NCBI GenBank assembly: GCA_903836265.1
Contig: CAILQK010000286.1
Span: 1 to 40,657 of the forward strand
Direction: 5' to 3'
Origin: an uncultured Bacteroidota bacterium
Lineage (GTDB): Bacteria > Bacteroidota > Bacteroidia > Chitinophagales > Saprospiraceae
DNA length: 40,657 nucleotides
Part shown: piece after piece, positions 13,012 to 28,949 of the stretch
Layout: every line of letters begins with the position of its first letter
How positions within the stretch are numbered: position 1 is the stretch's first letter
The notes under the pieces: model-generated
Seen by the model: the letters and a program-made list of their open reading frames with translations, nothing else
The model's database searches: none
What the model was told of the DNA's origin: nothing
Translations under genes and position numbers: made by a program

Positions 13012-13190
13012 TACAGTCAGTATTGCCGGTTCAGTCTGGAACAGAATATTCCGGTGCAATGCTATAAAGATTTTAATTATCAGGAGTAATTTTTTTGAAA
13101 TACGAAAAATGCCGAATTTACAGTATTGCTGTTAACTTTACAACCGTAAAAATGTCCCTCGTATCGTTTTTTGCAAACAACTGTACTATA

Positions 13191-14465
13191 ATGTCTGGCT
13201 ATTTGATTTTTTTCGCCTCGCTGGTCATCTCTGCCTGCAATTCGTGCAAATGTTCTGTCAGTACACAGAGCGGGGCTGTCCGGCAGGCTGCCGAATTTGA
13301 ACCTGCCGGGGCAATCTGGATGCTTTGGCCCAACTACGATCACAAGCAGGGTTTTTCCAATGAACAGGTTTCTCTCGATATCATTCACGCGTTGCTCCCG
13401 TACGCGCGTGTGAAACTCGTATTCCCTTCCGACAGTATTCGAAACAGAAAAACCGCACTCCTCCCGGCTGATGCCCTGCAATCCGGCACACTGGAAACAC
13501 TGGTATTGCCTTACCGCGAATTTTGGGCCCGTGATATGGGCCCCTCATTCGTTATCAGGAATAACAGACTCGCAATAGCCGATTTCAATTTTAACGGCTG
13601 GAATTACGGAAGTTTAACCGACTCACTGACCTGCCTCGATGAAAAACTGGATGAAAAAATAGCTGCTTATCTTGGGTTGCCCGTTTTTTCTACCGACATG
13701 ATTACTGAAGGAGGAAATCATGAGGTGAACGGGAAAGGTACCATTATCCTGACAGCCAGTGTGGAAAAAACACGAAATCCCGGAATGTCTCAGGAACAAA
13801 TTGAATCCGAGTTCAGGCGGGTACTTGGTGTTCGCAAGATAATATGGCTTGAAAAAGGACTCTGTGAGGACGATAATACGCAAACTGGACCTCTCACAAA
13901 CAGGTTCGGAGAAAAGGTATATATGCCCCTGACCACCAACGGACATGCGGATGAATATGTCCGGTTTGTCGGCCCGCGAACTATTCTGCTCGCACAGGCA
14001 GATACCACCGGCGGCGATCCGATTTCAATGGAAAACCACCGGAGGCTGGAGGCTGCATTTCGCACGCTCAGCCAGGAAACTGATCAGGACGGGAATCCTT
14101 TTCACATCGCAAGAATGCCCTTGCCTTGTCATACCTTTGAATACATGAAGCCGGGGGATGTCGTGTACGATATCATAAGCACGTTTTCATTCAGCGACGG
14201 GAGCACTTTCCCGAATGGTAAACCAGTCCTTGTTATTGCCGCTGCCAGTTACCTGAACTTTCTGATCGCCAATGACTGTGTTATTATGCCTGCATACTGG
14301 AAGGAAGGATTGCCTGTCGAAATCAGACAAAGAGACGAGGAGGCAAGAAATATCATGCAGTCAGTTTTTCCTGATAAAAAAATCATCTCACTCGATGTGA
14401 TGCCTGTAAATCTTGGCGGTGGCGGAATTCACTGCATCACACGAAACGAACCAAAACCAGGCTAA
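13191..14465 (+). CDS. aguA: Agmatine deiminase/PAD_porph family protein with a lipoprotein signal
   Basis: The 424-residue product belongs to the agmatine deiminase/Porphyromonas-type peptidylarginine deiminase family. Catalytic marks are visible: RDMGPSF (Asp115), TEGGNHEV, NGHADEYVRF (His252, Asp254, Glu255), and the nucleophile Cys415 in GGGGIHCITR. These enzymes hydrolyse a guanidino group; agmatine gives N-carbamoylputrescine and ammonia. Unlike the usual cytosolic AguA, the family core (AEFEPAGAIWMLWP) is preceded by a signal with lipobox-like LVISACNS, so the protein is probably a lipoprotein outside the cytoplasm. ATG 13191 gives this signal; ATG 13152 or a start at 13095 would lengthen it. 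The aguB gene starts 2 bases after the stop, which supports agmatine as substrate, although a secreted peptidylarginine deiminase role cannot be excluded. Confidence 0.85.
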   Translation: MSGYLIFFASLVISACNSCKCSVSTQSGAVRQAAEFEPAGAIWMLWPNYDHKQGFSNEQVSLDIIHALLPYARVKLVFPSDSIRNRKTALLPADALQSGTLETLVLPYREFWARDMGPSFVIRNNRLAIADFNFNGWNYGSLTDSLTCLDEKLDEKIAAYLGLPVFSTDMITEGGNHEVNGKGTIILTASVEKTRNPGMSQEQIESEFRRVLGVRKIIWLEKGLCEDDNTQTGPLTNRFGEKVYMPLTTNGHADEYVRFVGPRTILLAQADTTGGDPISMENHRRLEAAFRTLSQETDQDGNPFHIARMPLPCHTFEYMKPGDVVYDIISTFSFSDGSTFPNGKPVLVIAAASYLNFLIANDCVIMPAYWKEGLPVEIRQRDEEARNIMQSVFPDKKIISLDVMPVNLGGGGIHCITRNEPKPG

Positions 14466-14467
14466 TA

Positions 14468-15331
14468 ATGAGCACTGAAACTACTGTCCGAATTGCCCTG
14501 ATACAACTCGCCTGTGGCGAAAATGTGCGGGATAATGAAAAGAAACACATTGAAAAAATCAGGGAGGCAGCAGCCTGCGGAGCCCGGATAATCGGACTGC
14601 AGGAGTTGTTCCACGCGCAGTATTTCCCCCGGACGGTGGATGTGAAGAATTACCGGTTTGCCACAAAAATCCGGTCGGAACTTACCGATATGCTCACCGC
14701 GCTGGCGGCCGAACTCGAAGTGGTACTGATTGTACCCATTTATGAAGAAGCTTTGCCAGGTGTATATTTCAACACGGCAATCGTGCTTGATGCAGACGGG
14801 ATCATGTTGGGGAAATACAGAAAAAATCACATTCCCGATGGCCCGCAGTACCATGAAAAGTTCTACTTCACACCAGGTGATACAGGTTATCCTGTCTTCG
14901 ATACCAGATATGGTCGTATCGCAGTGGGTATCTGCTGGGATGAATGGTTTCCCGAAGTGGCACGCATTTTCGCACTGCAGGGTGCCGATATCATTTTTTA
15001 CCCGTCTGCAATCGGGAGCGAGCCTGATCGCCCGGATTACAGCAGCCACGAAGCATGGCAGACTGTTATCAGGTCACACGGAATCACCAACGGCGTATTC
15101 ATTGCTGCCAGCAACAGGGTGGGCACTGAAAAGGATATGACGTTCTATGGCCACAGCTTCATCAGCGACCCCTTTGGTGATTTCCTCGCCAGCGCACAAC
15201 ACGAGGAAACCATTATTCATGCCGAATGCAACTTCAACAGGATTCGTGAAGCCCGCGAACTGCTGCAATTTTTACGGGACAGAAGGGTAGATACCTATGC
15301 CCCGATATTGAAAAAACTGTTATCTGATTAG
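14468..15331 (+). CDS. aguB: N-carbamoylputrescine amidase (nitrilase superfamily)
   Basis: The 287-residue product is a carbon-nitrogen hydrolase with the complete catalytic triad: Glu46 in LQELFHAQYF, Lys119 in YRKNHIPDGPQYHEKFYFTP, and Cys156 in GICWDEWFPE. These contexts are those of AguB, which hydrolyses N-carbamoylputrescine to putrescine, CO2 and ammonia. There is no signal peptide, so it acts in the cytoplasm, in contrast with the exported-looking AguA upstream. Its length is normal for the family. It directly follows aguA (2 bases) and must share its transcript. Its last 12 bases overlap the end of the convergent giant surface protein gene, so there is no room for a separate terminator between them. 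Confidence 0.93.
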   Translation: MSTETTVRIALIQLACGENVRDNEKKHIEKIREAAACGARIIGLQELFHAQYFPRTVDVKNYRFATKIRSELTDMLTALAAELEVVLIVPIYEEALPGVYFNTAIVLDADGIMLGKYRKNHIPDGPQYHEKFYFTPGDTGYPVFDTRYGRIAVGICWDEWFPEVARIFALQGADIIFYPSAIGSEPDRPDYSSHEAWQTVIRSHGITNGVFIAASNRVGTEKDMTFYGHSFISDPFGDFLASAQHEETIIHAECNFNRIREARELLQFLRDRRVDTYAPILKKLLSD

Positions 15332-18300
15332 TGTCACATTGCCCACCCGCCTGAAGCGGTCACCGGAACAATCCAGTTCAATTACGTATATGTAAACATC
15401 TGAAACTGCCGGTTTCCCCCGCACGTTCCCGTCCCATGAGGCGGCTCCTGCATACTCGTACACTTTTTCACCCCAGCGGTCATAAATGGTCATTCGTCCG
15501 ATGGCTGGCCCTCCCTCCGCCAGCACAGGCGCAAATGTGTCATTAGAACCATCTCCGTTGGGTGTAAATGCGTTGGGAATATCTGCCTGTTCCGGACCAC
15601 AGGGTGGCGCCACAACTATCCTCCATACTATGGTGTCTGCACATCCGCTGTTGTTGGTAATCACCAGTATATATTCAAAATATCCCGATGAATCGGGTGT
15701 GACAGTTATTTCCTGACAGTTGTCGCAGTTGACAGCCGGATACCAGGTATAGCCTGTATATCCGGTTATCCCTCCCAGCACAACAGAAGCTCCGGAATTG
15801 CCGTACAGGGTATCAGGTTGAGGCTCATCAGGCAAATCAAGTGCTGTTGCCGTTACGCAGTGTATGCTGTCGCATCCGTTTGCACCAGTGTAGATTCGGC
15901 ATATTTTCCCGGATTGTACTATCACTGTATCCAGTACGGGAACTGCTGTGCCTGCACAAAAACTGATTTCTTCGCTGGTCTCTTTCCTGTCCAGAATAAC
16001 CACCTCCTGTGTCACGATACTGTCGCATCCGTTCCGGTTCGATAACAACAGGGAGAATACCCCCTCTGTGGCTGTGACGCTGCTGCCAAGTACGGTGATG
16101 GTTTCGCCATCACAGCTGCGGATAACCGGAAGTACCGTCGAGTCTGGCGGAAAAACTTCCACCTGCGCAGCAGAGGTGGTAGTACATCCATTCGAAAAAG
16201 TGACTGTTACTGTATATGTCCCGCTTTGTACGGCTGTTATCAACTGGCTCTGGGATCCTGACGCCGTAATGCCGGTTCCTGACCAGTTGTACAGTTGCCC
16301 GGTCGGCTGAGCTTCCAGTCTGATGCTGTCTCCGGCGCAAACTGTACTGCTTGTCAGGGTGATGGAGGCGTTTTCTCCGAAAGAATAAAAGAAATGATGG
16401 ATAACCTCACAATCACCGTTCTTTTCCAGGAGTCTCAGCTCACTGTTCAGTGCTTGCGGAGTGAACGTGGTGACAGCGCACGAAAGGCATGCCAACCCGT
16501 CGGCAGGCGGAAGCCAGGTGTAGGTCGCGCCCGCCTGCGCGGGTACACCCGTCTGTACAGGCGTAAGATCACAATAGCTGATGGTATCGTTGAGTTGCTC
16601 AATCAGATGCAGTGGCAACAAGACCGGACTGCAAATACAGTTTTGACCGGCAGGAAGTTCAACAAGCAATCCGCACAAGTAGGAAGGATGGAAAGGCAAA
16701 CTGTCCGATAACATTACCACTTCACCCGGCGCAATGCCGGGTATATCATCAAAATGGAGTAAAAGAGAGTCCCCTGTACTCACTTCTCCATTTCTGTCTC
16801 TGTCAAACCAGATGTTTGTCTGGTCAGTGTAGGCATAAACCGACCCGTTGTTGGCCAGATTGATACGTGCAGTGATTTGTCCGTTCTGCACAACTGCGCT
16901 GGCCGACTCGATCGCCAGTTCGGGACGGAGCACCTGCAACGGAATGGTAGCAGACCCCGTGGCTATATATACATCACAGGGCGCCCCCAGTGTGGCGCAA
17001 TAGGCGACTGTCCGGATGCGTGTCTGTACGGTCAGGTTCAAATCGTCACATCCCGTATCACCCCTGAATTCTGCTTCAAAAAAGAAAACAAACTGACTTC
17101 CTGCCCCCCCGGGAGGCAATGGCAGCCTGAATCCGCCGGAAGTAATGGTTGGCGGCCCCGCAGGCGCACCCGGCCCCGGTTCGTATGAATTTGTCAGATA
17201 AATAACACCTTCTGGCAGGGTTACGTAAATACTGTCGCCCGGCGAAGGACTGCCCAGCAGCGTGACAACTGTCTGGAAGGTCTGCAATGTACCACATACA
17301 CCCGATCCGGTTACCTGACTGACTGAAATAGAGACTCCGTACGATGGCGATAACCCCTGAACTTTTATTTCCTGTCCCGGTTTGTTCAGCCTGTTTGTAC
17401 TCGCTCCGCACGGCTCATTGCCAGATACGCCGTAAATAATTGGCGTATTGGACACAAATCCGCAGGTAGTCCTCACCCTGAAACGTAGAAAAATGATATT
17501 CGCCGGCGACTGGTTGATACCTGGAAGGCCGTTGACAGCAATAAACGGAACTATTTCTGCCAGTTTCCACAGACCCAGGTTTCCGTTCAGTAAAGTCGGG
17601 TCAGGTATATTCACCCAACCGGCCGGGGCATATTGTATCTGGGATGTTCCAGGCTCCACTTCCATACCCTGTGGCAATTTTACTGTGGCCGAAATATCAT
17701 AGGCGTAACCGGCATTTGCATTGTAAATTTTCATTATATAATAACCGGATGTATCGCAGAGCGACAGGTCGTTATCTTCCTGTAAAATATCCAGTTCCAG
17801 CTCGGGTTTGGCGAGCCGGAGCAGTATTCTGAAGGTGTCTCTCGAACAACTGGTTGCATTGATATCGGTGTAGGCTGCACAATCCCAGCCATAAATCAGC
17901 ATCAGGGTATCGGTTGCGCAGTGGGTAGTCTCTCCGGCAAGTCTGAACGGGGAGGACGAGAATCCCGACAAATTGGGCAGGTTGAACAGATTGTTTACTG
18001 ACGGCACCTGCTGTCCTGACGGCATTTTGAGCAGACTGAAGTTGCCGGTCTGTCCTGAAGATGACTGAATGTTCAGCCATACGTTTTTTGCTGTGTTTAC
18101 AAACAGATTTTTCAGGTCGAAATCGGCTTCAAACCGGCGACTGTCGGAAATAATTACAGTATCCGCCGATTTGATATCGAGGTCGGGATAATTGGAAAAG
18201 TATCCGATCTGGTTTTTAAGGATGGTATCGAAAACCATCCTGTCGCTGTTCAGGCATCCCTCGAAGGTGGTGGTAATAATTTGCCGCGATGTATCGGGGT

Positions 18301-21208
18301 TCCTGAAGGTACAATTGGGGTCAAAAACGATATTGGTTTTGAGCAGGAAACCTTCATCAACCAGCGAAGCAAAGGCAGGAGAGAAGTCAACATCCATCAA
18401 CCCGGGTGTCTGAACGAAGGGTAATGCCGTGTTGCTCAGCAGCAGCTGATTGTCCTGCAGCAATAACTGGCTGACTCTGACAGTATTTGCTGTTATTCCG
18501 TCAGGCACAGTAAGCCGGTATCCGGAAATTATCCCCAGTGGCCTGACTTCTTTCGTAAAAAGATTGGCTCGTGCAATACGCAGCGAATAGTTGAAGTCGC
18601 TTACCTCCAGCGATGGTTCGCACGGCCGAATATTGAATGTGTTGTTTTTGAGTTTGAATCTGAATCCGGAGTACTGCTGTTTGACTCTGGGGAACCGCGT
18701 CCAGGCACACAGCCAGTCGCCATGACTGAGTGCTGTCTGAATGCCAATCAGCACCGGATTTTCCGGATTGTTGTTCGTTTCGTTGTAGTTCAGGTCAATT
18801 TTGAAGTCTGTGCAGAAAAAAATGGAATCCCCCGGCCCCAGAACTGGACTCGGCAGCAATCCCTGAGCAAACAACTGACCGAAATTAACGATGAAACTGT
18901 GTTTCTGTGAACTCAGCTGATCCAGCAGGTTGTCGGGATACTTGTTGGGTATCAGCATTCGTATGAAATTGTTGTCGTCGGTGTCCGCCAGACTGGCGAT
19001 TCCGAGTGCAACGGAACTGCCATCGGCATACCTTATTCTCATACTGTCGCCCAGAAGCCTGAATCTGGTTTCTTCGAACATTCGGGTGCGAAGATCAAGC
19101 AGTGAGACTGAATCGTTCTCCGGGTCTGCCATATCGCTCAGCAGTGCCTCGTGAAAAATATTTCTGGGAAGGATGGCTATTTTGCCGGTATCAACGTATC
19201 CGCAGTATTCAACCCGCATGGTATCTCCCGCCAGGAAACGGTCGCGCCGTATCTCGTTTTTGACTGCACGGGTACCGTCGTCGGCAATCCGGTCATCATT
19301 GCTGTCTCTGTATCCGATATTCAGCCGGAAGGCATCGAATTTCCATTGATAATTGCCAGGAAGAGATCCTGAACCGCCGCTGCCGTTCCCGCCACCACCA
19401 CCGCCGCCCCAAGTGCAGTCCTCAAGCACCAGATCGTACTCTCTGCAAACACCAGTCCCGCACGTCGTGGTGCTGTCTGATGAACCCGAAACAAACGAAA
19501 CAACCGACATTTTGCGGATACAGGGCAGGCAGTTGGCTACATAGATATCAAAAAAATCGGGATCCGGCGAGAGCTGCTGCGGACATACTGCTGCCGGATC
19601 GCAATCATACCTGATGCAAAAATTCATCTGCATCTGAAAAGATGGCAGCGGCAAACTGTAAACCCAGCGGAATCTCCCACCCGGAAGTTGTGTGAAACTC
19701 AGTGGGTCGGCACCTGAAAGTGTAGTCTGGCAAGCCGTATCCAGACTGATTCCCGGCGGAAGCTGCATGTCAATGTGCAGGTAGCGTCCGGATGCAGACA
19801 GTTGTGCTGATCTGACCATCAGGGTTACCGGATAGGAGTTGCCGCTTGTCAGGCAAGCCTCCACATCCATGAATAATTCTTCGTTCAGCTGAGCTCCCGT
19901 ACTTGTTTTGAGATTCAGAAAGCCTGACACAAATCCTCCTGGCGGACAATCCTTCTGATAATAATAATCAACACGAATATCTGCCTTTGTCTGTTCACAA
20001 AACGATGCACAGGTGAGCAGGTCAAAGGTGAGGGTAGCTGTGTCTCCCGCTTTTATTTCCGGAATAATCAGTGTCATACTGCCAGCCTTGCCCGGATCAC
20101 ATGAAAACGAATCACTGACCGGAGCGACGTTGGGAACAATGGGAAAGTCAGTGCCCGACTGGCTCAGCACCACGCTCGTCTGGTCAAAGACGTGAATACC
20201 GGCCCCCATTTCAAAAGTGGTATTGATAATGATGTTTTTAGCCGGTGCACCGCCTGTATTTACAATTTTTACACCCATCAGCGCACCTTCTCCGGCACAC
20301 TGGCTCACTATCGGACCGGTGATTCCGGTAAAATTCAAATCGGGTACCAGCGTGGAGGGTTTGATCAGTATATTTGCCTGAATACTGTCGTAGGTGCAAA
20401 GTTCTGTTCCGCAACCCCAGCCGGCTCTCATCACTGATGGTAACAGAAACGAGGGGGTGCCACAACTTTGTATAACTATTTTTTCAGTAAAACAGATGGT
20501 TTCTCCAAATTCAAGCAATTCATCATTGTCGCCTGCAGAACTGATCAGCGCCGGATCAATTTCCGCCCTGAACAAGAGGGCACCCGAAGTACTGTTCAGG
20601 ACATGATCCATGAAAATGTTCATCCCGGAAGCGTGGGCGTCTTCAAAAAAAACGCGCCTGATTGCTCCCAAACGTGTGTTTTTTACACATATTTTCCGAT
20701 AAAGCGTATCAAAACGCTCACCCTCCATATAAACGTCATCTACACTTTCAATTAGTAACAGTCCGGTTTCCAGCGGAATAGAGCTGGTGACCACCGAGAC
20801 AGATACGTTGCTGCCGGTCAACCCAATTGTACACGGAAAAAGACTTCCTGCATTCAGTCCGCGTGCTGCCAGACAATCTGCTGTAATAATCAGAGATACC
20901 GTGCGGCTGGCACCCGGTGGCAATGAACTCACTTCAAACAGCGGCTCTGCCAGGTTGCCGGTGTTCAGCTCCGTTGCACCGGTTGCTGTTCCCGGCTCAT
21001 ACCAGATTCCTCCGGGCAGTTTTACCGACAAATTTCCCGAAACAGGCTGTATGCCACCATTTTGAAGACTGACGAAAAGTGTGTCTCTCCCGCATACATA
21101 CAGTGAATCTGGCAGGGTGTATTGCAGAACGACACCCTGATTTTGTGCCAGTGCGACTGACAAAGAAAAAACAGGCAGGGAGGCACAGAGAAGAAGGTGT
21201 TTCAACAT
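15320..21208 (-). CDS. Giant secreted surface protein with type IX secretion type B (gliding-motility) C-terminal domain
   Basis: The 1962-residue product starts with a signal peptide (MLKHLLLCASLPVFSLSVAL, cut near AQNQG). It ends with a type B sorting domain at about residues 1870-1962, recognisable by IPNAFTPNGDGSNDTF, MTIYDRWGEKVYEY and WDGNVRGKP, so it should be exported through the type IX system to the cell surface. The body is a chain of extracellular beta-sandwich modules of the DUF11/conserved-repeat type (for example VTLPEGVIYLTNSYEPGPG and VKLPQGMEVEPGTSQIQY) rich in Cys pairs. A Gly-rich linker (WGGGGGGGNGSGGSGS) lies near residues 600-615, an Ig-like segment at about 1620-1685, and two SprB-type units containing NGCDSI near 1725 and 1780. 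A role as adhesin or surface scaffold is the usual inference; no enzyme domain is seen. Confidence 0.92.
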   Translation of the reverse strand: MLKHLLLCASLPVFSLSVALAQNQGVVLQYTLPDSLYVCGRDTLFVSLQNGGIQPVSGNLSVKLPGGIWYEPGTATGATELNTGNLAEPLFEVSSLPPGASRTVSLIITADCLAARGLNAGSLFPCTIGLTGSNVSVSVVTSSIPLETGLLLIESVDDVYMEGERFDTLYRKICVKNTRLGAIRRVFFEDAHASGMNIFMDHVLNSTSGALLFRAEIDPALISSAGDNDELLEFGETICFTEKIVIQSCGTPSFLLPSVMRAGWGCGTELCTYDSIQANILIKPSTLVPDLNFTGITGPIVSQCAGEGALMGVKIVNTGGAPAKNIIINTTFEMGAGIHVFDQTSVVLSQSGTDFPIVPNVAPVSDSFSCDPGKAGSMTLIIPEIKAGDTATLTFDLLTCASFCEQTKADIRVDYYYQKDCPPGGFVSGFLNLKTSTGAQLNEELFMDVEACLTSGNSYPVTLMVRSAQLSASGRYLHIDMQLPPGISLDTACQTTLSGADPLSFTQLPGGRFRWVYSLPLPSFQMQMNFCIRYDCDPAAVCPQQLSPDPDFFDIYVANCLPCIRKMSVVSFVSGSSDSTTTCGTGVCREYDLVLEDCTWGGGGGGGNGSGGSGSLPGNYQWKFDAFRLNIGYRDSNDDRIADDGTRAVKNEIRRDRFLAGDTMRVEYCGYVDTGKIAILPRNIFHEALLSDMADPENDSVSLLDLRTRMFEETRFRLLGDSMRIRYADGSSVALGIASLADTDDNNFIRMLIPNKYPDNLLDQLSSQKHSFIVNFGQLFAQGLLPSPVLGPGDSIFFCTDFKIDLNYNETNNNPENPVLIGIQTALSHGDWLCAWTRFPRVKQQYSGFRFKLKNNTFNIRPCEPSLEVSDFNYSLRIARANLFTKEVRPLGIISGYRLTVPDGITANTVRVSQLLLQDNQLLLSNTALPFVQTPGLMDVDFSPAFASLVDEGFLLKTNIVFDPNCTFRNPDTSRQIITTTFEGCLNSDRMVFDTILKNQIGYFSNYPDLDIKSADTVIISDSRRFEADFDLKNLFVNTAKNVWLNIQSSSGQTGNFSLLKMPSGQQVPSVNNLFNLPNLSGFSSSPFRLAGETTHCATDTLMLIYGWDCAAYTDINATSCSRDTFRILLRLAKPELELDILQEDNDLSLCDTSGYYIMKIYNANAGYAYDISATVKLPQGMEVEPGTSQIQYAPAGWVNIPDPTLLNGNLGLWKLAEIVPFIAVNGLPGINQSPANIIFLRFRVRTTCGFVSNTPIIYGVSGNEPCGASTNRLNKPGQEIKVQGLSPSYGVSISVSQVTGSGVCGTLQTFQTVVTLLGSPSPGDSIYVTLPEGVIYLTNSYEPGPGAPAGPPTITSGGFRLPLPPGGAGSQFVFFFEAEFRGDTGCDDLNLTVQTRIRTVAYCATLGAPCDVYIATGSATIPLQVLRPELAIESASAVVQNGQITARINLANNGSVYAYTDQTNIWFDRDRNGEVSTGDSLLLHFDDIPGIAPGEVVMLSDSLPFHPSYLCGLLVELPAGQNCICSPVLLPLHLIEQLNDTISYCDLTPVQTGVPAQAGATYTWLPPADGLACLSCAVTTFTPQALNSELRLLEKNGDCEVIHHFFYSFGENASITLTSSTVCAGDSIRLEAQPTGQLYNWSGTGITASGSQSQLITAVQSGTYTVTVTFSNGCTTTSAAQVEVFPPDSTVLPVIRSCDGETITVLGSSVTATEGVFSLLLSNRNGCDSIVTQEVVILDRKETSEEISFCAGTAVPVLDTVIVQSGKICRIYTGANGCDSIHCVTATALDLPDEPQPDTLYGNSGASVVLGGITGYTGYTWYPAVNCDNCQEITVTPDSSGYFEYILVITNNSGCADTIVWRIVVAPPCGPEQADIPNAFTPNGDGSNDTFAPVLAEGGPAIGRMTIYDRWGEKVYEYAGAASWDGNVRGKPAVSDVYIYVIELDCSGDRFRRVGNVTLIR

Positions 21209-22016: not shown

Positions 22017-22590
22017 GTCGCTTTACCCGGCCGTTTACCATGGCATCTGTCACCTGAAATACAATCAGAGGTTTCTGTGAACGCCAGAAAATATCGTTGT
22101 ACTCATCACCGAAATGAATGTAGTGCTGAAGCCTGGCCTCCTGCATTTCTTCCATCACATGCTGACGGGTATTGAGACACACCACCCAGCCACCTTCTTC
22201 ATGCACTTCTTCGGCCAGTTCTGCATAGTAATCATCATCTGAACTGTGAAAATTAAGAACATTGTCGCAGAAAAGAATGAACTTGACAATGCCCTTTTCA
22301 TACAGCATTTCAAGTACACGCCTTTTCAGGTGCATGATATCGTTGTACAGCGCATCATTCCACTCGCCAATCAGCTCGATCAGCGCGAACTGATCATCAT
22401 AATCCACGAACAATATCTTGCAGTACAGCGTTGATGAGCCGAATGCATCCCATTGCGGATGCAGATAAAAATTGTACAACTTGTGCGTGTACTGAAACTC
22501 GCTGTACTTTCGGCCGAAAAAGGGCGAATCCCTGTCTTCCTCTGCCGTGTAAAGTTCGCGCCACTGATAATGAGGCTCAATGTTGTGCAT
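22006..22590 (-). CDS. Conserved hypothetical protein, cytoplasmic
   Basis: I do not recognise a named family for this 194-residue product. It has no signal peptide or membrane segment. It is rich in aromatic and acidic residues (SEFQYTHKLYNFYLHPQWDA near the N terminus, SSDDDYYAELAEEVHEEGG in the middle). A Rossmann-like alternation of strands and helices seems possible: KILFVDYDDQFALIEL, then a helix, then IVKFILFCDNVLNF, a helix, and WVVCLNTRQHV. The coding sequence looks genuine: it is free of rare-looking stretches, ends 11 bases inside the plsC end and starts 35 bases from a divergent kinase gene. A perfect TAACTTTG (22623-22616) sits 26 bases upstream of its ATG and could be its -7 element. 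Confidence 0.75.
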   Translation of the reverse strand: MHNIEPHYQWRELYTAEEDRDSPFFGRKYSEFQYTHKLYNFYLHPQWDAFGSSTLYCKILFVDYDDQFALIELIGEWNDALYNDIMHLKRRVLEMLYEKGIVKFILFCDNVLNFHSSDDDYYAELAEEVHEEGGWVVCLNTRQHVMEEMQEARLQHYIHFGDEYNDIFWRSQKPLIVFQVTDAMVNGRVKRLTF

Positions 22591-22615
22591 GTTTCACTGA
22601 ATTGTTCAAGCGCCG

Positions 22616-22623
22616 CAAAGTTA
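22616..22623 (-). promoter_or_regulatory. -7 promoter element upstream of the hypothetical gene at 22006-22590
   Basis: On the minus strand these bases read TAACTTTG, a full match to TAnnTTTG, placing a transcript start near 22609 and a leader of about 20 bases before the ATG at 22590. No clear -33 TTTG is seen at the right distance, because that region lies inside the start of the divergent kinase gene. Confidence 0.4.
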
Positions 22624-22625
22624 CC

Positions 22626-23150
22626 ATGATCTCACAACATGTACGACTGAGAGTTGTACTTACAGGGCCAGAATCTTCCGGGAAAACCACGCTGGCCCGC
22701 GCGCTGGCCGACTTTTACAGTTGCGGAATGGTGCCCGAGTTCGCCCGCTCCTTCCTTGACGCACTCCGAAGGGAATACCACCACAACGATCTGGCACTTA
22801 TCGCCCGCGGACAGGCTGCCTGGGAGCGATGGCATGCCGCCCACTCAAAACACTGGCTGCTTGTTTGCGATACCGACTGGACTGTCATCAGAATCTGGGA
22901 ATCATTCAAATACGGATCCACCCAACACACACTGCACTGCGCTCCCGCACCTGATACGCTTCACCTCCTTTGTAAACCGGATATTGAATGGGAGCCCGAT
23001 CCGCTCCGGGAAAATCCGGACAATCGCGATGAATTGTTCGCGCTTTATGAACAATTGCTGAAAGAAACTGGTTTAAGATACTGTATTTTGTCAGGCAATC
23101 TGACACACAGGTTTCAGAATGCTGTGTCTGCGATTGAAAAATATTCCTGA
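22626..23150 (+). CDS. NadR-like P-loop kinase (AAA_28 family ATPase)
   Basis: The 174-residue product opens with a Walker A loop at residues 14-21 (GPESSGKT), followed by VPEFARSFLDAL, the typical second motif of the NadR nicotinamide riboside kinase domain, and LLVCDTDWTVIRIW as the Walker B-like strand. Its length equals the kinase domain alone, so the NMN adenylyltransferase and regulator domains of full NadR are absent. In other Bacteroidota such stand-alone kinases are found beside PnuC-type transporters and TonB receptors controlled by TPP riboswitches. Here the gene ends 6 bases before a TPP riboswitch. A role in trapping a vitamin precursor (nicotinamide riboside or thiamine) by phosphorylation is inference. 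ATG 22626 was chosen over 22431 because residues before it are not family-like. Confidence 0.8.
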   Translation: MISQHVRLRVVLTGPESSGKTTLARALADFYSCGMVPEFARSFLDALRREYHHNDLALIARGQAAWERWHAAHSKHWLLVCDTDWTVIRIWESFKYGSTQHTLHCAPAPDTLHLLCKPDIEWEPDPLRENPDNRDELFALYEQLLKETGLRYCILSGNLTHRFQNAVSAIEKYS

Positions 23151-23156
23151 CATTTG

Positions 23157-23237
23157 CAGTCCTCATTGGGGTGCTGGCTCTGCCGGCTGAGATAAAACCC
23201 ATCGAACTTGCGCGGGTAATTCCGGGCAAGGAACTGA
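23157..23237 (+). promoter_or_regulatory. TPP (THI-box) riboswitch aptamer
   Basis: The leader of the TonB receptor gene contains the conserved blocks of the thiamine pyrophosphate aptamer in order. GGGGTGC (23168-23174) comes first, then GGCTGAGATAAAACCC, ATCGAACTTG, GGGTAATTCCGG and GCAAGGAACTGAG. The outer P1 stem can form between CAGTCC (23157-23162) and GGAACTG (about 23230-23236) with one bulged base. TPP binding to this aptamer normally lowers expression of thiamine synthesis or uptake genes. Confidence 0.88.
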
Positions 23238-23242
23238 GACGG

Positions 23243-23284
23243 GTAGTGGCATCACTACACCTGCAAAAGCCCCTTTGGCAGGTG
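23243..23284 (+). promoter_or_regulatory. Expression platform of the TPP riboswitch: two consecutive hairpins
   Basis: Directly after the aptamer lies GTAGTG-GCAT-CACTAC (23243-23258). A second hairpin follows with outer arms CACCTGC (23258-23264) and GCAGGTG (23278-23284) and an inner AAAG/CTTT extension. The two stems share base 23258. A T-rich stretch (TTCTTTTTTC) follows 16 bases after the second stem and runs into the ATG at 23311. The second hairpin is therefore not a classical terminator with an immediate T-tract. It could act by attenuation or by occluding the translation start. Confidence 0.55.
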
Positions 23285-23310
23285 GATGTTTCACTCAATC
23301 TTCTTTTTTC

Positions 23311-25539
23311 ATGACAAAGTTTGTCAGTCCACTGGCCTTTGCGTCGTTCTTCCTGTCTTCTTCTCTGTTCTCACAGTCTCCCGACTCGACATCCCTGAAG
23401 GAGGTTGTCATTCAGGCCACTCGTGCGGGCGAGCGCATGCCCGTGCCACACAACAATTTCAGGTCGAAAGCAATTCTTGAAACGTTGCATACACAGGACG
23501 TACCCTATCTGCTGTCCGCAACACCCTCGCTGGTGGAAAGTTCCGACGGAGGTACAGGAACCGGTTATACGGGTATGCGCATCCGCGGGAGCGATCAGTC
23601 GAGAATCAATGTCACTATCAATGGTGTGCCGCTCAACGATGCCGAAAGTCAGAATGTTTTCTGGGTCAATTTGCCAGATCTGGCGGCCTCGGCTTCTGAA
23701 ATTCAGGTGCAGCGCGGAGTGGGGAGCAGTACGAACGGGGCCGGCGCATTCGGAGCCACGGTAAACCTGGATCTGACCAGAATAGTTGCCGATGCATCCG
23801 CTTCCGCAGCTGTTTCAGCCGGGTCGTTTAATACCCGACGACTGTCGGCCCAGCTCAATTCCGGATTGCTGGGCCGCTGGGCTTTCTCCGGAAGGGCATC
23901 AGCCATTGAAGCGGACGGATATATTGACCGCGCCAGTGCCAGTCTCCGCTCCATGCACTTGTCAGGCGCCTATGTCGGAGACAAACACACTGTTCAGGCG
24001 CACGCGCTGCTCGGCAGGGAGATCACTTACCAGGCGTGGAACGGTGTGCCCGTACAATACGTCAACGACCCGGTGCTGCGTACTTTCAACAGCGCAGGAG
24101 CAGAGCGGTCGGGTGAGCCATACAACAACGAGATTGACAATTACACCCAGAATCATTATCTGCTGCATTACAAATATGCCATTTCGCCGCTGTGGCTGTT
24201 ACAGCTGAATGGCCACTATACCCGCGGATACGGATATTTTGAACAATACAAAGCCGACCAGCAATTTAAAAGATATGGACTGACACCGCTGCTTGTCGCC
24301 GATACGGTGATTGAAGAAACTGACCTCGTCAGACAGCGCTGGCTCGACAATCACTTCTACGGAGCCACCTTCGCTCTTCGCCGCAACTCGCGCTCCGATG
24401 CAGGCACTTATGCCATGGCTGGCGGAGCTTTGAGTCGTTATGAGGGTGATCACTTCGGCAAGGTAATCTGGTCGGAATGGCCTGCTGGAAACGGGAAGGA
24501 CTATCGCTACTACGACAATTCTGCCTCAAAACTCGACGCCAATATCTATGTCAAAGCCCAGAAGCAGTTTACACAGCGACTGAATGCCTATCTCGATCTG
24601 CAGGGCCGTATGGTCAATTATGATTTTGTGGGCTTCAATCAGAATCTGGAGCCGGCAACTCAGCGAGTCGAGCACAGGTTCTTCAATCCGAAAGCCGGTC
24701 TTACCTTCACTTTTTCAGACAATCTGAATGCTTATGCGTTTTGGGGTACAGGCCACCGGGAGCCCAACAGGGATGATTACACGCAGTCGAGCCCGTCATC
24801 CAGGCCGTCGGCCGAGCGACTGAGCGATTCCGAGCTGGGAGTTCGCTACGGGAAAGACGGATTTGCACTTGCAGCCAATCTGTTTTACATGAACTACAAA
24901 AACCAGCTGATCCCTGACGGACGAATCAATGATGTAGGTGCATATATCAGAACGAATGTGCCCGACAGCTATCGGGCCGGACTGGAACTGGAGGCATCGT
25001 TCTCGGCAGGAATATGGCAGTTTGCAGGAAATGCTGCCATCAGCCGGAACAGGGTGCGCAGTTTCACCGAATACCGCGACAACTGGGACACAGGCGGACA
25101 GGATGTCTTTGAGTATAAAAACACTGCCCTTGCTTTCTCTCCGGAAATGATAGCACGCGGGGAGGTGGCATGCAAAATCCTTGAAAGAAAACAAACAAAA
25201 CTGATGCTCACTGCTGTCGGCAAATATGTGGGGAGCCAGTTCCTCGACAATACCGGGTCTTCTGCCATGCTGAATGCCTATTTTGTCAGCGATCTGCGAC
25301 TGAATATTGATTTTCCGTGGATGAAAATGCAAAAAGGCAGCTTTATTCTCACCTGTAACAACTGGCTGAATGAGCAGTTTGCGAACAATGGCTGGGTTTA
25401 CAGATTTACCTCTGCCGGTTATGACCCTCGTCCCGATGATCCCTATTCGGTTGGAGATGGCAATGGCGTTTACCGCCAGACCGGCCTGTTTCCGCAGGCA
25501 GGACGAAACTGGATGGGTACCCTGAGGGTTGAATTTTGA
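23311..25539 (+). CDS. TonB-dependent outer-membrane receptor, probable thiamine-compound importer
   Basis: The 742-residue product has a signal peptide (MTKFVSPLAFASFFLSSSLF, cut near SQSPD), a TonB-box-like LKEVVIQATRA at about residues 25-35, and a plug with MRIRGSDQSRINVTINGVPL and FWVNLPDLAASASEIQVQRG. A 22-strand-type barrel follows, ending LFPQAGRNWMGTLRVEF with a terminal Phe. It lacks the carboxypeptidase-like domain of SusC proteins and its size is that of vitamin, heme or siderophore receptors. The TPP riboswitch in its leader points to thiamine or a thiamine phosphate as cargo; TPP-controlled TonB receptors are known in Bacteroidota. ATG 23311 was chosen over 23275 because it gives the signal peptide directly. 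No inner-membrane transporter gene (PnuT/PnuC type) follows; instead a tRNA gene on the other strand does. Confidence 0.9.
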   Translation: MTKFVSPLAFASFFLSSSLFSQSPDSTSLKEVVIQATRAGERMPVPHNNFRSKAILETLHTQDVPYLLSATPSLVESSDGGTGTGYTGMRIRGSDQSRINVTINGVPLNDAESQNVFWVNLPDLAASASEIQVQRGVGSSTNGAGAFGATVNLDLTRIVADASASAAVSAGSFNTRRLSAQLNSGLLGRWAFSGRASAIEADGYIDRASASLRSMHLSGAYVGDKHTVQAHALLGREITYQAWNGVPVQYVNDPVLRTFNSAGAERSGEPYNNEIDNYTQNHYLLHYKYAISPLWLLQLNGHYTRGYGYFEQYKADQQFKRYGLTPLLVADTVIEETDLVRQRWLDNHFYGATFALRRNSRSDAGTYAMAGGALSRYEGDHFGKVIWSEWPAGNGKDYRYYDNSASKLDANIYVKAQKQFTQRLNAYLDLQGRMVNYDFVGFNQNLEPATQRVEHRFFNPKAGLTFTFSDNLNAYAFWGTGHREPNRDDYTQSSPSSRPSAERLSDSELGVRYGKDGFALAANLFYMNYKNQLIPDGRINDVGAYIRTNVPDSYRAGLELEASFSAGIWQFAGNAAISRNRVRSFTEYRDNWDTGGQDVFEYKNTALAFSPEMIARGEVACKILERKQTKLMLTAVGKYVGSQFLDNTGSSAMLNAYFVSDLRLNIDFPWMKMQKGSFILTCNNWLNEQFANNGWVYRFTSAGYDPRPDDPYSVGDGNGVYRQTGLFPQAGRNWMGTLRVEF

Positions 25540-25587: not shown

Positions 25588-25671
25588 TGCCCGGAACAGG
25601 ACTCGAACCTGCACGACCTTTGGGGTCAAGGGATTTTAAGTCCCTCGTGTCTACCATTTCACCACCCGGGC
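25588..25671 (-). tRNA. tRNA-Leu (anticodon UAA)
   Basis: Read on the minus strand, the 84-base gene folds as a class II tRNA. The acceptor stem is GCCCGGG with TCCGGGC (one G-U) and discriminator A. The D arm carries GGTAGAC, the anticodon arm GGGAC-TTAAAA-TCCC places UAA at the anticodon, a long variable arm (TTGACCCC...GGTCGTG region) follows, and the T arm is CAGG-TTCGAGT-CCTG. The long variable arm and UAA identify leucine. The CCA end is not encoded. It stands alone, between the TonB receptor and the CotH pair. Confidence 0.95.
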
Positions 25672-25702: not shown

Positions 25703-27280
25703 TTATTCCGCCTTCAGAAACTCATAAGACGCACGCTCGGGGAAAACAGCGGCGGCTTCGTCATTTTCGGCAGCCACGTAATAGTGTTTCACCTTCGATT
25801 TGTCAATCAGTGCAGTGTATATTCCGTCTGCGGCCTTCGCATCGCCGTTGGTGCCATCGTCGGTCATGGGAATATGGGAGAATGCAAAACTTTTGTCTCT
25901 GCGGAAATAAAGTGTACCGCCTTTGGTTGCTCCGGTCAGTTTGGCTGTGACCCGCAGTTTTTCAGCTTCCCTGACGTGTTTTACCTCTGCAATAACCGGC
26001 TGAACCTTGTTGAGAAGCGGATGCTTGGCAAGCCATTCTGTGCGCCTGGCCATGAGTTGTCGCAGTCCGATCAGGTGGTCGGGCGCAAAGGTGAGAGTAC
26101 TGTCAAGCGAGTTGCTGAAGTCTTTCTGACTGTACAGTTTCAGCGAGTCCAGTTTCACCCAGGGTTCTATTTCCTTTTGCATGGCCTGGGCACGCGTCAA
26201 CAGCTGATTGTTCAGAAGCCAGTCGCTGGTGATCGTGCGCACGTGTGCGAGATAAATCTTCCGGTAGGTGTTGTTGCGCAGTATTTTTGAGATCAGCGGT
26301 CGCTTCACATTGTCAATCTCAGTCAGCGGCTGATACTTTACAAGTTCGTCGTCTTTCATTTCCTCGAAGGAGAAGTTGCGCCGCCATCCGCCAAAGCACA
26401 TGTTGAGGTCCCAGAGAATCGGATGGGCAACGCCGGTTGTATCGAACCACAGGTAGTAATTGTGCGAGAGTGATCCGTTGTAGCTGTCGAGGTTGACCAT
26501 GACATTGTTGAAGGCGAGCATCCAGAGGGTCTGGTCAACGTCAAGTACGGTTTCAATCTGGTCGGGTGTCCGGTTGAGTACGCGAATCAGATTCAGCAGC
26601 GGTTTCCAGGTTCTTTCGTTTTCCACCTCGTAAAATGCTTCATAACATCCTGGGCTCTCGTTCAGGTAAACCAGCGATGCGTTTTCGCCTTTCGGGCACC
26701 CGGTCTGGCTTCTTGTTTTCTTCCAGTTGTCGGGGTCACATTTTACAATGTCGCCGGTGGTGGTGCCGAAATGTTTATTGATGAAATTTGCGTCAACAGA
26801 TTCGGAATTTACGTAAAGTCCGTAATACTTGTTGTTGATATAAACATTTGCAAAGTTGCACAACGGGGCGGGCATGTATTTTCTTGCCACCTCGTAACCA
26901 AGGGGCTCTCTTACAAAACCCGGGTCAAGGAAGCCGTTGGAGAGTTTGATGGTTCTGTGTCCACCCTTTAACTGCTGGTTGCGCTTTTTGTAGTCGAGTT
27001 TGATATTGAGCGGCAGTTTCTTGTAGGTATCCTTTCTGGTTTTGAAATAGGAGCTGTTACCCTTGTATCTTACACCAACGCTGTCCAGCTTGAGGCCATT
27101 CACCCAAACCAGACCCTGAGCCCTTGCATCCGGATTGGCTTTTTTCAGCGAGTCGAGTTGCTGGTCCCAGCGCTGATAGGGGAGTCCGATTTTTACTTCC
27201 TGTACCCCGGTGCCGTAGAAATCCTGTGCACTCAGGCCGAAGGAAAAAAGCAGAAAAAAGAGAAGTGCTGTATTCTTCAT
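25703..27280 (-). CDS. Secreted CotH-type kinase family protein (second of a tandem pair)
   Basis: The 525-residue product has a signal peptide (MKNTALLFFLLFSFGLSAQD) and the features of the CotH family: VRYKGNSSY near residue 75 (the R-x-KG motif), NVYINNKYYGLYVNSESVD, the segment MVNLDSYNGSLSHNYYLWFD, and the probable metal-binding HPILWDLNMCFGGW. CotH of Bacillus spores is an atypical protein kinase; the role of exported bacterial relatives is not known. The C-terminal 100 residues form a separate beta-rich domain (from about PVIAEVKHVREAEKL) with a choice-of-anchor-like GDAKAADGIYTALI segment. It starts 20 bases after the paralogue upstream, so the two are co-transcribed. Without a sorting domain, it is probably periplasmic. 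Confidence 0.88.
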   Translation of the reverse strand: MKNTALLFFLLFSFGLSAQDFYGTGVQEVKIGLPYQRWDQQLDSLKKANPDARAQGLVWVNGLKLDSVGVRYKGNSSYFKTRKDTYKKLPLNIKLDYKKRNQQLKGGHRTIKLSNGFLDPGFVREPLGYEVARKYMPAPLCNFANVYINNKYYGLYVNSESVDANFINKHFGTTTGDIVKCDPDNWKKTRSQTGCPKGENASLVYLNESPGCYEAFYEVENERTWKPLLNLIRVLNRTPDQIETVLDVDQTLWMLAFNNVMVNLDSYNGSLSHNYYLWFDTTGVAHPILWDLNMCFGGWRRNFSFEEMKDDELVKYQPLTEIDNVKRPLISKILRNNTYRKIYLAHVRTITSDWLLNNQLLTRAQAMQKEIEPWVKLDSLKLYSQKDFSNSLDSTLTFAPDHLIGLRQLMARRTEWLAKHPLLNKVQPVIAEVKHVREAEKLRVTAKLTGATKGGTLYFRRDKSFAFSHIPMTDDGTNGDAKAADGIYTALIDKSKVKHYYVAAENDEAAAVFPERASYEFLKAE

Positions 27281-27300
27281 TTGAAACTGTATATTCGCTT

Positions 27301-28908
27301 TTATTTATTCAAATCGCTGAGTTTTACCCTGTAAGGCTCGCGTGTGTAGCCTGCAGGAGCAAAATTGACCGATCCTGCATTTTCTGCCACAATATAGTAT
27401 TCCATTTCGGTATCCGGGCCCTTCGCTTCGATGCTGGCCGTGAAACTCTTGACGCCGGATGGCAATCCGCCCGTATTATCCTCGTTCATCGGAACCAATG
27501 AATAGGACTGACTATGATCAAAGCGATAGTAAACCAGCATTCGCTTGGGGAAACGATCGGCACGGGCAGTGATATTGAAGGTATTGACGGGCTGATTTTC
27601 GAATTTGGCTCTTGCCTGTACTTTTACCTCCGAGACGGAAGATGGCAGGGTAGTGAGCTCCGGATGGTTTTTCAGGTATTTGCTCCGTCTCGACATCAGC
27701 TCAATAATGCCGGGAATCTTGCTCTTCTTGCCAATTGTGGTGCGCAAACTCGACTGAAAATCGTCGAGACTGTATGTCTTGTACTTGTCTTCGCTGAGTG
27801 GTACCACAATCATGCCCTGCAATTCGGCCGACCGCTTCTCGTATGCGCCATTCAGAAAGTTCTCTTCATTGATCTGCCTGATGTGCGCCAGATATACTTT
27901 TTTATAGTAAGGGTCTTTCAGCAGCTGGCTGATCAGGGGTTTGTACGGGTTGTCAGCATGCAGCAGCGGATCGAGCTCCTGCAGTTGTGTGAGCTCCAGA
28001 TCACTTCCCTCACCTGTATTTTTGTAGCTGCCAAAAGCAAGGTTGAGATCCCAGTGTATCGGCTGGAATTTTCCGTTCCCGTCTTTGTAGAGGTAGTAAT
28101 TTACACTGTGGTTACCGGAGTAACTGTTCAGGTTTACCATGATATTGTTGAGGGCCAGCATCCAGAGAGCCCTGTCAGTGTCCAGTACTTTTTCAACGTC
28201 CTTCGGCCCCTGTGAAAGCAGTCGGGCAAATTCCTGCAAGCCCTTCCAGTCAGCTTCAGAATTTCCCTCAAAATTGCCTTTGTAGCAGTCTGCGTTGCTC
28301 TCGTACTCGAGCGAACCATAGATATTCAGTTTGCATGAAGCCGGCAGATTACCCGGCCTGTTGTCAACACCTGCCTTGAATACAGAACCGCCCGAGTTGC
28401 CAAAATTTCGCTCAAGCATTTGCTTTTCAATGCTTTCCACATTAATAAAAACCCCTATGTACTCGTCGTTGACAAACAGTTTTGTGAAGCCTGTTTTCGA
28501 CCCGGGCATGTATCTGGCTGCTATTTCGTGAAACAGGGCCTCCCTGATCATGCTCGGATCGCGAACGGCAGCCGACAATTTGACGGTGCTGTAGCCCTGA
28601 TGCTGCTGTCCGGGGGTTTTATAGTCAAGTTTGATCTGAAACGGGTTTCTTTTCAGTCCGGTGGTATATGACTTGTCCCCCCTGAATCGTACGCCGGCAC
28701 CCTGATAGGATTTGCCGTCAATGATAACTGTGGCATCCATCAGTCCGCCTCCGTATATACGCATGGAGTCGAGCTGGTCAGACCAGTTCCGGGCATCAAC
28801 CCTGATCCTTATCTCTCCGACTGTTTTGCTGTCGAAAAGCTGACGCCCCGACTGCGCGTAAAGGTGCAGTGTAGCAAACAAAAAGATGAGAATCAGACTG
28901 TTTTTCAT
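27301..28908 (-). CDS. Secreted CotH-type kinase family protein (first of a tandem pair)
   Basis: The 535-residue product has a signal peptide (MKNSLILIFLFATLHLYAQS) and the same plan as its neighbour: VRFRGDKSY, KLFVNDEYIGVFINVESIE, MVNLNSYSGNHSVNYYLYKD and the WDLNLAFGS motif at about residue 290. A C-terminal beta-rich domain begins near PSSVSEVKVQARAKFENQ and ends in a part about AENAGSVNFAP. ATG 28908 was chosen over 28926 because it starts the signal peptide. It is a clear paralogue of the 25703-27280 product and probably arose with it by tandem duplication. A promoter-like sequence lies 42 bases upstream. Confidence 0.88.
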   Translation of the reverse strand: MKNSLILIFLFATLHLYAQSGRQLFDSKTVGEIRIRVDARNWSDQLDSMRIYGGGLMDATVIIDGKSYQGAGVRFRGDKSYTTGLKRNPFQIKLDYKTPGQQHQGYSTVKLSAAVRDPSMIREALFHEIAARYMPGSKTGFTKLFVNDEYIGVFINVESIEKQMLERNFGNSGGSVFKAGVDNRPGNLPASCKLNIYGSLEYESNADCYKGNFEGNSEADWKGLQEFARLLSQGPKDVEKVLDTDRALWMLALNNIMVNLNSYSGNHSVNYYLYKDGNGKFQPIHWDLNLAFGSYKNTGEGSDLELTQLQELDPLLHADNPYKPLISQLLKDPYYKKVYLAHIRQINEENFLNGAYEKRSAELQGMIVVPLSEDKYKTYSLDDFQSSLRTTIGKKSKIPGIIELMSRRSKYLKNHPELTTLPSSVSEVKVQARAKFENQPVNTFNITARADRFPKRMLVYYRFDHSQSYSLVPMNEDNTGGLPSGVKSFTASIEAKGPDTEMEYYIVAENAGSVNFAPAGYTREPYRVKLSDLNK

Positions 28909-28949
28909 GTTCAATTGCTTAGGCATGTTGAGAATGGAGAATCGGGGCG

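What the first reader, a model, noticed from the sequence alone, without database searches (positions are those of the whole stretch)
23157..23310. TPP riboswitch in front of a TonB receptor with an unusual two-hairpin platform
The conserved THI-box blocks are all present, which identifies the receptor as a thiamine-related importer without relying on protein homology. After the aptamer come two perfect hairpins that share one base, and the T-rich tract is 16 bases away, next to the ATG. This layout does not fit a plain intrinsic terminator and may act on translation or by a switch between stems.
Basis: partly seen in the sequence, partly recalled or inferred. Interest (0 to 1): 0.58.

Follow-up and report, generated by a model that had tools for sequence, protein, structure and literature searches.

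The report
Thiamine riboswitch with conserved two-fold leader
A vitamin B1-sensing RNA switch sits in front of an outer-membrane importer gene in an environmental Saprospiraceae bacterium, followed by a conserved RNA element that can fold in two mutually exclusive ways just before the start codon, which probably sets importer protein output in bacteria that seem unable to make the vitamin.

Summary
The TPP aptamer is real: RF00059 matches 23157-23250 end to end (47.4 bits, below the 54.3 cut-off, E 2e-8), the only TPP match in this genome. The two hairpins are real too. They belong to a leader kept in 41 of 42 genomes of this Saprospiraceae genus; the exact pattern occurs once in each of 34, always at the TPP site. 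Hairpin 2 covaries (7 of 8 pairs) and carries an RCCC tip in 39 of 39 loci. The conserved UUUCAC strand of stem B ends 15-20 nt before the start codon in 28 of 34 leaders; no terminator was found. This favours control of translation in a phylum without Shine-Dalgarno sites. How TPP tips the balance, and in which direction, is not shown: my folding calculation tended against an OFF switch. Riboswitch plus TonB receptor is known; the platform is a new variant. ThiC and TPK_catalytic were found in 0 of 42 genus genomes.

The parts
23157..23250 (+). TPP aptamer (RF00059), without P3a
   Evidence: cmscan 47.4 bits, full model length, E 2e-8; only TPP match in the genome
23162..23165 (+). P1 5' strand CUCA (pairs with UGAG 23235-23238)
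   Evidence: model alignment, sequence
23168..23172 (+). P2 5' strand GGGGU; proposed alternative partner of the RCCCC tip
   Evidence: at least 5 contiguous pairs (G-U counted) with the tip in 39 of 39 genus loci; the pairing itself is inference
23235..23238 (+). P1 3' strand UGAG
   Evidence: model alignment
23243..23258 (+). hairpin 1, GUAGUG-GCAU-CACUAC
   Evidence: 90.0% of cells paired over 35 distinct sequences
23258..23284 (+). hairpin 2, variable stem
   Evidence: 7 of 8 consensus pairs have compensatory changes
23269..23273 (+). RCCCC (here GCCCC) at the tip of hairpin 2
   Evidence: alignment A2
23245..23253 (+). stem B 5' side: AGUG (23245-23248) and CAUC (23250-23253); overlaps hairpin 1
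   Evidence: 90.4% of cells paired; part of the lowest-energy fold of the full leader
23285..23295 (+). stem B 3' side: GAUG (23285-23288) and CACU (23292-23295), holding the conserved tail UGUUUCAC
23301..23309 (+). T-rich tract, too far from hairpin 2 for an intrinsic terminator
23311..25539 (+). TonB-dependent outer-membrane receptor, 742 aa, regulated gene
   Evidence: PF07715 1.4e-10, PF00593 5.7e-21; downstream gene in 38 of 39 genus loci
22431..23150 (+). AAA_28 / NadR-kinase-like P-loop protein (likely start near 22626, by inspection); its stop is about 9 nt before P1
   Evidence: PF13521 1.6e-24; upstream neighbour in 24 of 39 genus loci, stop within 80 nt of P1 in 23 of those 24

Best explanation
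It is a TPP riboswitch, probably inside an operon, that sets production of a thiamine-related TonB receptor, most likely by controlling translation start. The segment after the aptamer is a bistable platform. In one fold, hairpin 1 and hairpin 2 stand side by side and the strand UUUCAC, about 15-20 nt before the AUG, is free. In the other fold the 5' half of hairpin 1 pairs instead with that strand (stem B), making one long hairpin capped by the RCCCC tip and closing the ribosome landing zone. I infer that TPP binding favours the long hairpin and lowers receptor synthesis, and that without TPP the RCCCC tip, which copies the 3' strand of aptamer helix P2, pairs with the aptamer's GGGGU and holds the aptamer open. 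Shown: aptamer, conservation, covariation of hairpin 2, mutual exclusion of hairpin 1 and stem B by shared bases, spacing to the AUG, no terminator match. Supported but weaker: stem B by compensatory change. Inferred: tip-aptamer pairing, direction of the switch, translation as the level of control.
For: Aptamer. Platform: the exact pattern CCCCN{3,16}GGATGTTTCAC occurs once in each of 34 of 42 genus genomes, at the TPP site in all 34, including G009 and G017, whose aptamers the model missed because of insertions; 7 more genomes have variants; only G028 (76% complete) has none. Hairpin 2: 7 of 8 pairs compensatory. Stem B: 90.4% of cells paired, reached by 0 of 500 shuffles; 4 cells changed on both sides, reached by 1 of 500; it is in the lowest-energy fold of the full leader. 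G014 has a rewritten tail (GAACAUUGCU) and partner (GGUAGUGUUC) that still give 10 contiguous pairs, G-U included. Five leaders from other genera (G065, G262, G092, G195, G114) fold into the same kind of long hairpin with an (R)CCC tip (19 leaders chosen by eye); the genus model finds G092 at E 5.7e-4 and G065 at 0.015 among 67 loci. Bistability: the two forced folds differ by at most 3 kcal/mol in 29 of 35, stem B lower in 24 of 35. Tip and aptamer: at least 5 contiguous pairs in 39 of 39; tip and GGG linker: 12 of 39 as printed, 11 after correcting G035. The three CACCC tips (G003, G007, G023) reach six pairs, ACACCC with GGGUGU. Translation: tail to AUG spacing 15-20 nt in 28 of 34; no terminator match; the riboswitch follows the AAA_28 stop codon closely; Bacteroidetes lack Shine-Dalgarno sequences and tune initiation by mRNA structure (PMC6847099, start of abstract in the search listing); in B. 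thetaiotaomicron the predicted TPP-riboswitch transport operons showed no significant mRNA change with thiamine (PMC5613172, passages).
Against: Direction: forcing the aptamer fold raised mean tail pairing only from 0.50 to 0.58, and made the AUG region more open, not less (mean 0.58 to 0.67; up by 0.03 or more in 18 of 34 loci, down by as much in 6; in this genome 0.48 to 0.85). In this genome the lowest-energy fold extends stem B by pairing part of the P1 3' strand (GAGA, 23236-23239) with UCUU (23302-23305), so aptamer formation would open the start region: this argues against an OFF switch. Vienna cannot include the proposed tip-aptamer pairing. The swap test for stem B is not significant (284 of 5000; 654 of 10,000 on 18 distinct pairs). 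Most stem B and hairpin 1 positions rarely change, so their covariation is thin, and the sequences are related; RNAalifold predicts only hairpin 2. Stem B and tip-aptamer pairing do not exclude each other by sequence, so the coupling is a gap in the model. The aptamer GGGG is fixed for TPP binding, so '39 of 39' reflects conservation of the tip, not covariation.
Confidence: 0.45

Rival explanations
1. Conventional P1-strand exchange: a downstream segment pairs with the P1 3' strand (UGAG) when TPP is absent; the hairpins are spacers.
For: In this genome the tail contains CUCA (23294-23297), complementary to UGAG, and the lowest-energy fold of the full leader does consume part of the P1 3' strand, though by pairing GAGA (23236-23239) with UCUU (23302-23305), not with CUCA.
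Against: UGAG and tail CUCA occur together in only 15 of 39 genus loci; complementarity of leaders to the P1 3' side is not above shuffles in any of three groups (mean z 0.04, 0.09, 0.20). It does not explain the RCCCC tip or the GGAUGUUUCAC tail.
Confidence: 0.2
2. Transcription control: factor-dependent (Rho) or pausing-based termination in the leader, with the long hairpin as terminator or anti-terminator.
For: T-rich tract before the ATG; in this genome the long hairpin of the lowest-energy fold extends into it. Rho control of riboswitch leaders is known in E. coli (cited in PMC12121620, passage).
Against: No intrinsic terminator match; the T tract is not kept in all relatives, for example G004. 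In TaRTLEt only 6 of 57 TPP riboswitches showed transcriptional activity, none of them named from the Bacteroides species whose data were included (PMC12121620, passages).
Confidence: 0.2
3. The platform is a fixed structured insulator or RNA-stability element; hairpin 1 and stem B do not exchange in the cell.
For: Hairpin 1 and stem B positions are mostly invariant, so exchange is not proven; hairpin 1 is weak or absent in G001, G010, G018, G035 and G062.
Against: Both pairings are kept in about 90% of cells; near-equal energies in 29 of 35; tight spacing to the AUG.
Confidence: 0.1

Closest known systems
TPP riboswitch with OMthi (BT2390) and pnuT in Bacteroides thetaiotaomicron (PMC5613172, passages read)
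   Same: TPP riboswitch with a TonB-dependent thiamine receptor; a PnuC/PnuT-type transporter gene elsewhere in the genome
   Different: B. thetaiotaomicron has ThiC and Tnr3; here ThiC and TPK_catalytic were found in 0 of 42 genus genomes, the aptamer follows a NadR-like kinase gene, and the leader holds a conserved platform. The paper calls the mechanism in Bacteroidetes uncertain; the passages read describe no platform
E. coli thiM and thiB/tbpA translational TPP riboswitches (recalled; thiB is cited in a reference of PMC13273304)
   Same: TPP aptamer with a platform proposed to gate ribosome access
   Different: Those hide a Shine-Dalgarno site and use the P1 switching strand (recalled); no conserved P1 3' strand competitor was found here
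AdoCbl riboswitch loop pseudoknot (PMC2258182, passages read)
   Same: A C-rich loop taking part in a pairing between aptamer and sequences outside it
   Different: There the pseudoknot forms in response to ligand; here the C-rich loop is in the platform and the proposed pairing would oppose the ligand-bound aptamer fold
Terminator-type TPP platform covariation model (PMC13273304, passages read)
   Same: RF00059 aptamer plus a covarying downstream hairpin
   Different: That model was built from sequences filtered for intrinsic terminators, which this leader lacks

Membership tests
TPP riboswitch (RF00059) | Significant full-length match to the covariance model | tested here: met
   47.4 bits, positions 1-105, E 2e-8, E 6e-8 genome-wide
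TPP riboswitch (RF00059) | Conserved GGGGUG, CUGAGA and ACCC core blocks | tested here: met
TPP riboswitch (RF00059) | Score above Rfam's gathering cut-off, 54.3 (a curation threshold, not a structural feature) | tested here: not met
   47.4 bits; 13 of 42 genus genomes exceed it, so the lineage straddles the cut-off
TPP riboswitch (RF00059) | Binds TPP | not testable with these tools
   needs in-line probing
Thiamine-related TonB receptor (OMthi type) | Plug and beta-barrel domains | tested here: met
Thiamine-related TonB receptor (OMthi type) | TPP riboswitch upstream, conserved in relatives | tested here: met
Thiamine-related TonB receptor (OMthi type) | Transports thiamine | not testable with these tools
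   needs growth or uptake assay
Intrinsic transcription terminator | G+C-rich stem followed at once by a U tract | tested here: not met
   0 sites in 23000-23500; U tract starts 16 nt after hairpin 2
Shine-Dalgarno sequestering platform | SD hidden in a ligand-stabilised helix | tested here: not met
   no SD-like sequence at normal spacing before 23311, by inspection
P1-strand exchange platform | Conserved leader segment complementary to the P1 3' strand | tested here: not met
   UGAG with tail CUCA in 15 of 39 loci; mean z near 0; this genome alone has a GAGA/UCUU pairing in its lowest-energy fold

The most novel reading that the evidence does not exclude
A new, Shine-Dalgarno-independent TPP expression platform: a long start-proximal hairpin whose RCCCC tip mimics the aptamer's own P2 3' strand and captures the P2 5' strand GGGGU when TPP is absent, coupled to a hairpin 1 / stem B exchange that gates the ribosome landing zone. 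In this genus it is fixed; looser C-tip hairpins in other Saprospiraceae genera (14 of 65 leaders have an RCCC-loop hairpin against 4.4, sd 1.9, in shuffles; 12 of the 14 are not before ThiS-like starts, judged by eye, most of them receptor-like, one unresolved) would be its relatives.
Probability: 0.3. Interest if true: 0.6.

Novelty: new variant of a known kind. Interest (0 to 1): 0.45.

Why it matters
How TPP riboswitches work in Bacteroidetes, whose mRNAs lack Shine-Dalgarno sites, was called uncertain in 2017 (PMC5613172, passage). A leader found in 41 of 42 genomes, with two named alternative helices, turns that question into a set of point mutations and compensations. It also shows that Rfam's cut-off passes TPP riboswitches in only 13 of 42 genomes of this genus, and the genus is a case of probable thiamine importers without ThiC or a recognised thiamine pyrophosphokinase domain.

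Tried and rejected
Linker GGG(U) (23241-23244) as partner of the RCCCC tip: at least 4 pairs in 37 of 39 but at least 5 in only 12 of 39 (11 after correcting G035), and only 2 in G002 and G011; there are no free bases between linker, hairpin 1 and hairpin 2, so the tip is hard to reach (inference).

Conserved upstream start codon in GGATGTTTCAC: the triplet is ATG in most but CTG or TTG in G003, G007 and other genera, and its frame relative to the receptor varies with the spacing; not a conserved upstream ORF.

Second aptamer or reusable module: the exact pattern occurs nowhere else in 42 genus genomes; the platform model matches 4 of 248 family genomes at E 0.001, all four in the genus, and misses the other genera genome-wide.

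RNAalifold on my first alignment gave almost no structure (-0.2 kcal/mol) because variable-length stems were misaligned; alignment A2 was better, but its consensus shows only hairpin 2. The swap test for stem B was not significant.

Family-wide anti-5'-strand idea: leaders of other families of the order are complementary to the P1/P2 5' strand (mean z -1.82, 55% of 20 at p 0.05 or less), but in this genus the longer 5' strand is not (z -0.36) and only the short GGGG core tends to be (z -1.31); kept as a lead. RCCCC is not enriched in other families (3 of 21 against 2.0).

Known flaws: the script took a stem ACCC instead of the tip in G035; the true tip AACCCC still gives 5 pairs with the aptamer but only 4 with the linker. 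In one search the unconstrained minimum lies more than 5 kcal/mol below the forced stem B fold in 8 of 35 rows (G001, G003, G004, G007, G010, G014, G018, G035), because the alignment register is not their best one. In one search the start codons of G012, G014, G029 and G034 are uncertain; they are included in the 34, and G060-G064 were not in that run.

Full report
What was claimed. A TPP riboswitch before a TonB receptor, with two hairpins sharing one base and a T-rich tract too far away for a plain terminator.

The aptamer. Default Rfam scanning of the window reports only a tRNA. With an E-value threshold, RF00059 matches 23157-23250 (+) over positions 1-105 at 47.4 bits, E 2e-8; in the whole 4.3-Mb genome it is the only TPP match at E 0.001, E 6e-8. 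The score is under Rfam's cut-off of 54.3, as in most of the genus: 39 of 42 genomes have a match at E 0.001 or better but only 13 of 42 pass the cut-off. Two of the three genomes without a match (G009, G017) do carry the riboswitch: the conserved leader pattern found them and the sequence shows aptamers interrupted by an insertion in or next to P3. G028 (76% complete) remains without. In the wider family 184 of 248 sampled genomes have a TPP match.

The genes. The gene at 23311-25539 encodes 742 aa with Plug and TonB barrel domains. A related receptor lies downstream in 38 of 39 genus loci; the contig of the 39th, G024, ends too early. The nearest named relative is a Saprospiraceae metagenome-assembled genome with an 87% identical receptor (L057). 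ThiC was not found in this genome nor in any of 42 genus genomes, 29 of them at least 90% complete (the control search rang in 13 of 14 genomes). TPK_catalytic was found in 0 of 42 (control rang in 7 of 14). One PnuC/PnuT-type transporter gene is present on another contig. The organism is most simply read as an importer of thiamine (inference). The gene just upstream (AAA_28, NadR-kinase-like) ends about 9 nt before P1. A homologue precedes the riboswitch in 24 of 39 genus loci (the other 15 have 82 to 3011 bases of upstream sequence), with its stop within 20 nt of P1 in 13 and within 80 nt in 23 of those 24. No promoter-like site was found in 23000-23500. The riboswitch thus appears to lie inside an operon and to act on the receptor only (inference).

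The platform. Alignment of 35 distinct leaders shows linker GGG, hairpin 1, hairpin 2 with an RCCCC tip, and tail GGAUGUUUCAC. The tip is RCCC in 39 of 39 loci and RCCCC in 35 of 39 (G003, G007, G014 and G023 have three C). The tail has identity 0.92 against 0.47 for the next 12 nt. The pattern CCCCN{3,16}GGATGTTTCAC occurs exactly once in each of 34 of 42 genomes, at the TPP site each time; G003, G004, G007, G014, G016, G023 and G063 carry variants. Outside the genus the covariance model of the platform finds nothing genome-wide at E 0.001 (4 of 248 genomes match, all four in the genus). Among 67 TPP loci of other genera it finds three at E 5 or better: G092 5.7e-4, G065 0.015, G262 0.83.

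Helices. Hairpin 2 is supported by covariation: 7 of 8 consensus pairs carry compensatory changes. Hairpin 1 pairs in 90.0% of cells with two cells changed on both sides. A third helix, stem B, pairs AGUG (23245-23248) with CACU (23292-23295) and CAUC (23250-23253) with GAUG (23285-23288); it encloses hairpin 2, excludes hairpin 1, and is part of the lowest-energy fold of the full leader. It pairs in 90.4% of cells, 0 of 500 shuffles reaching that, with four cells changed on both sides (the sequences are related, so shuffle counts are not probabilities). G014, whose tail is rewritten, keeps it with 10 contiguous pairs, G-U included, and G010 and G062 keep it clearly better than hairpin 1 (by 6.6 and 6.7 kcal/mol). 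Five leaders of other genera, among 19 picked by eye, fold into the same kind of long hairpin. A swap test of stem B partners was not significant. Forced folds of the two states differ by 3 kcal/mol or less in 29 of 35 sequences, with stem B lower in 24; in 8 of 35 the forced register is not the best one.

Mechanism. No intrinsic terminator match is present. The tail ends 15-20 nt before the receptor AUG in 28 of 34 leaders, about where a 30S subunit would land. Bacteroidetes lack Shine-Dalgarno sequences and initiation there is tuned by mRNA structure (PMC6847099, start of abstract in listing). In B. thetaiotaomicron the TPP-riboswitch transport operons showed no significant mRNA change with thiamine (PMC5613172, passages). 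These point to translation. The RCCCC tip can pair with aptamer GGGGU over at least 5 contiguous bases (G-U counted) in 39 of 39 loci; the tips of G003, G007 and G023 read ACACCC and match GGGUGU over six. That is compatible with a tip that mimics P2's 3' strand; it does not prove it. I could not derive the direction. Forcing the aptamer raised mean tail pairing from 0.50 to 0.58 but opened the AUG region (0.58 to 0.67; up in 18 of 34, down in 6). In this genome the lowest-energy fold also pairs the linker GGGU with AUCU and P1 3' GAGA with UCUU before the start codon, so aptamer formation would free the start region there. These results speak against an OFF switch; Vienna does not model the proposed pseudoknot.

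Literature. Riboswitch plus OMthi is known (PMC5613172, passages). The covariation study of whole TPP riboswitches treats terminator-type platforms (PMC13273304, passages). Searches listed no paper whose title or abstract start describes this platform; the library holds open-licence papers only.

Verdict. Confirmed; ordinary as a riboswitch-gene pair, new as an expression platform. Interest 0.45.

Noticed in passing
22431-23150 (+), and 42 genus genomes: NadR-kinase-like AAA_28 gene directly before the riboswitch in 24 of 39 genus loci, in a genus with TPK_catalytic in 0 of 42; AAA_28 is found in 40 of 42 genomes. A candidate non-orthologous thiamine kinase or pyrophosphokinase; G002 and G013 show neither, so the enzyme question stays open.
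   Followed up: partly
L057 / L231 (G017), aptamer region: Closest relative (87% identical receptor) has an insertion with terminal inverted repeats (TAGAGCGTGTCCAG...CTGGACACGCTCTA) at the optional P3a position of the aptamer, core and platform kept; G003, G007, G009, G012, G023 and G026 also have long inserts in the P3 region. The P3 arm seems to be a tolerated landing site.
   Followed up: partly
leaders of other families of the order (L002-L017, L022, L026, L031, L054-L056): The leader is often complementary to the P1/P2 5' strand (mean z -1.82, 55% of 20 at p 0.05 or less), for example L009, where UCCGG may also pair with CCGGA before the AUG (by eye). Suggests that TPP platforms there use the 5' strand instead of the P1 3' strand.
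   Followed up: partly
25703-28926 (-): Two adjacent CotH-kinase genes (PF08757), one with a choice-of-anchor X domain.
   Followed up: no
13095-15331 (+): Agmatine deiminase-like (two matched stretches) and N-carbamoylputrescine amidase-like genes side by side.
   Followed up: no
25588-25671 (-): tRNA gene (RF00005, 56.3 bits) with a 13-nt insertion in the variable arm, convergent with the receptor gene.
   Followed up: no
15320-21208 (-): Very long ORF of 1962 aa, not analysed.
   Followed up: no
L053 (G012): Predicted receptor start lies 189 nt after the tail; possible insertion between platform and gene, or a missed start codon.
   Followed up: no
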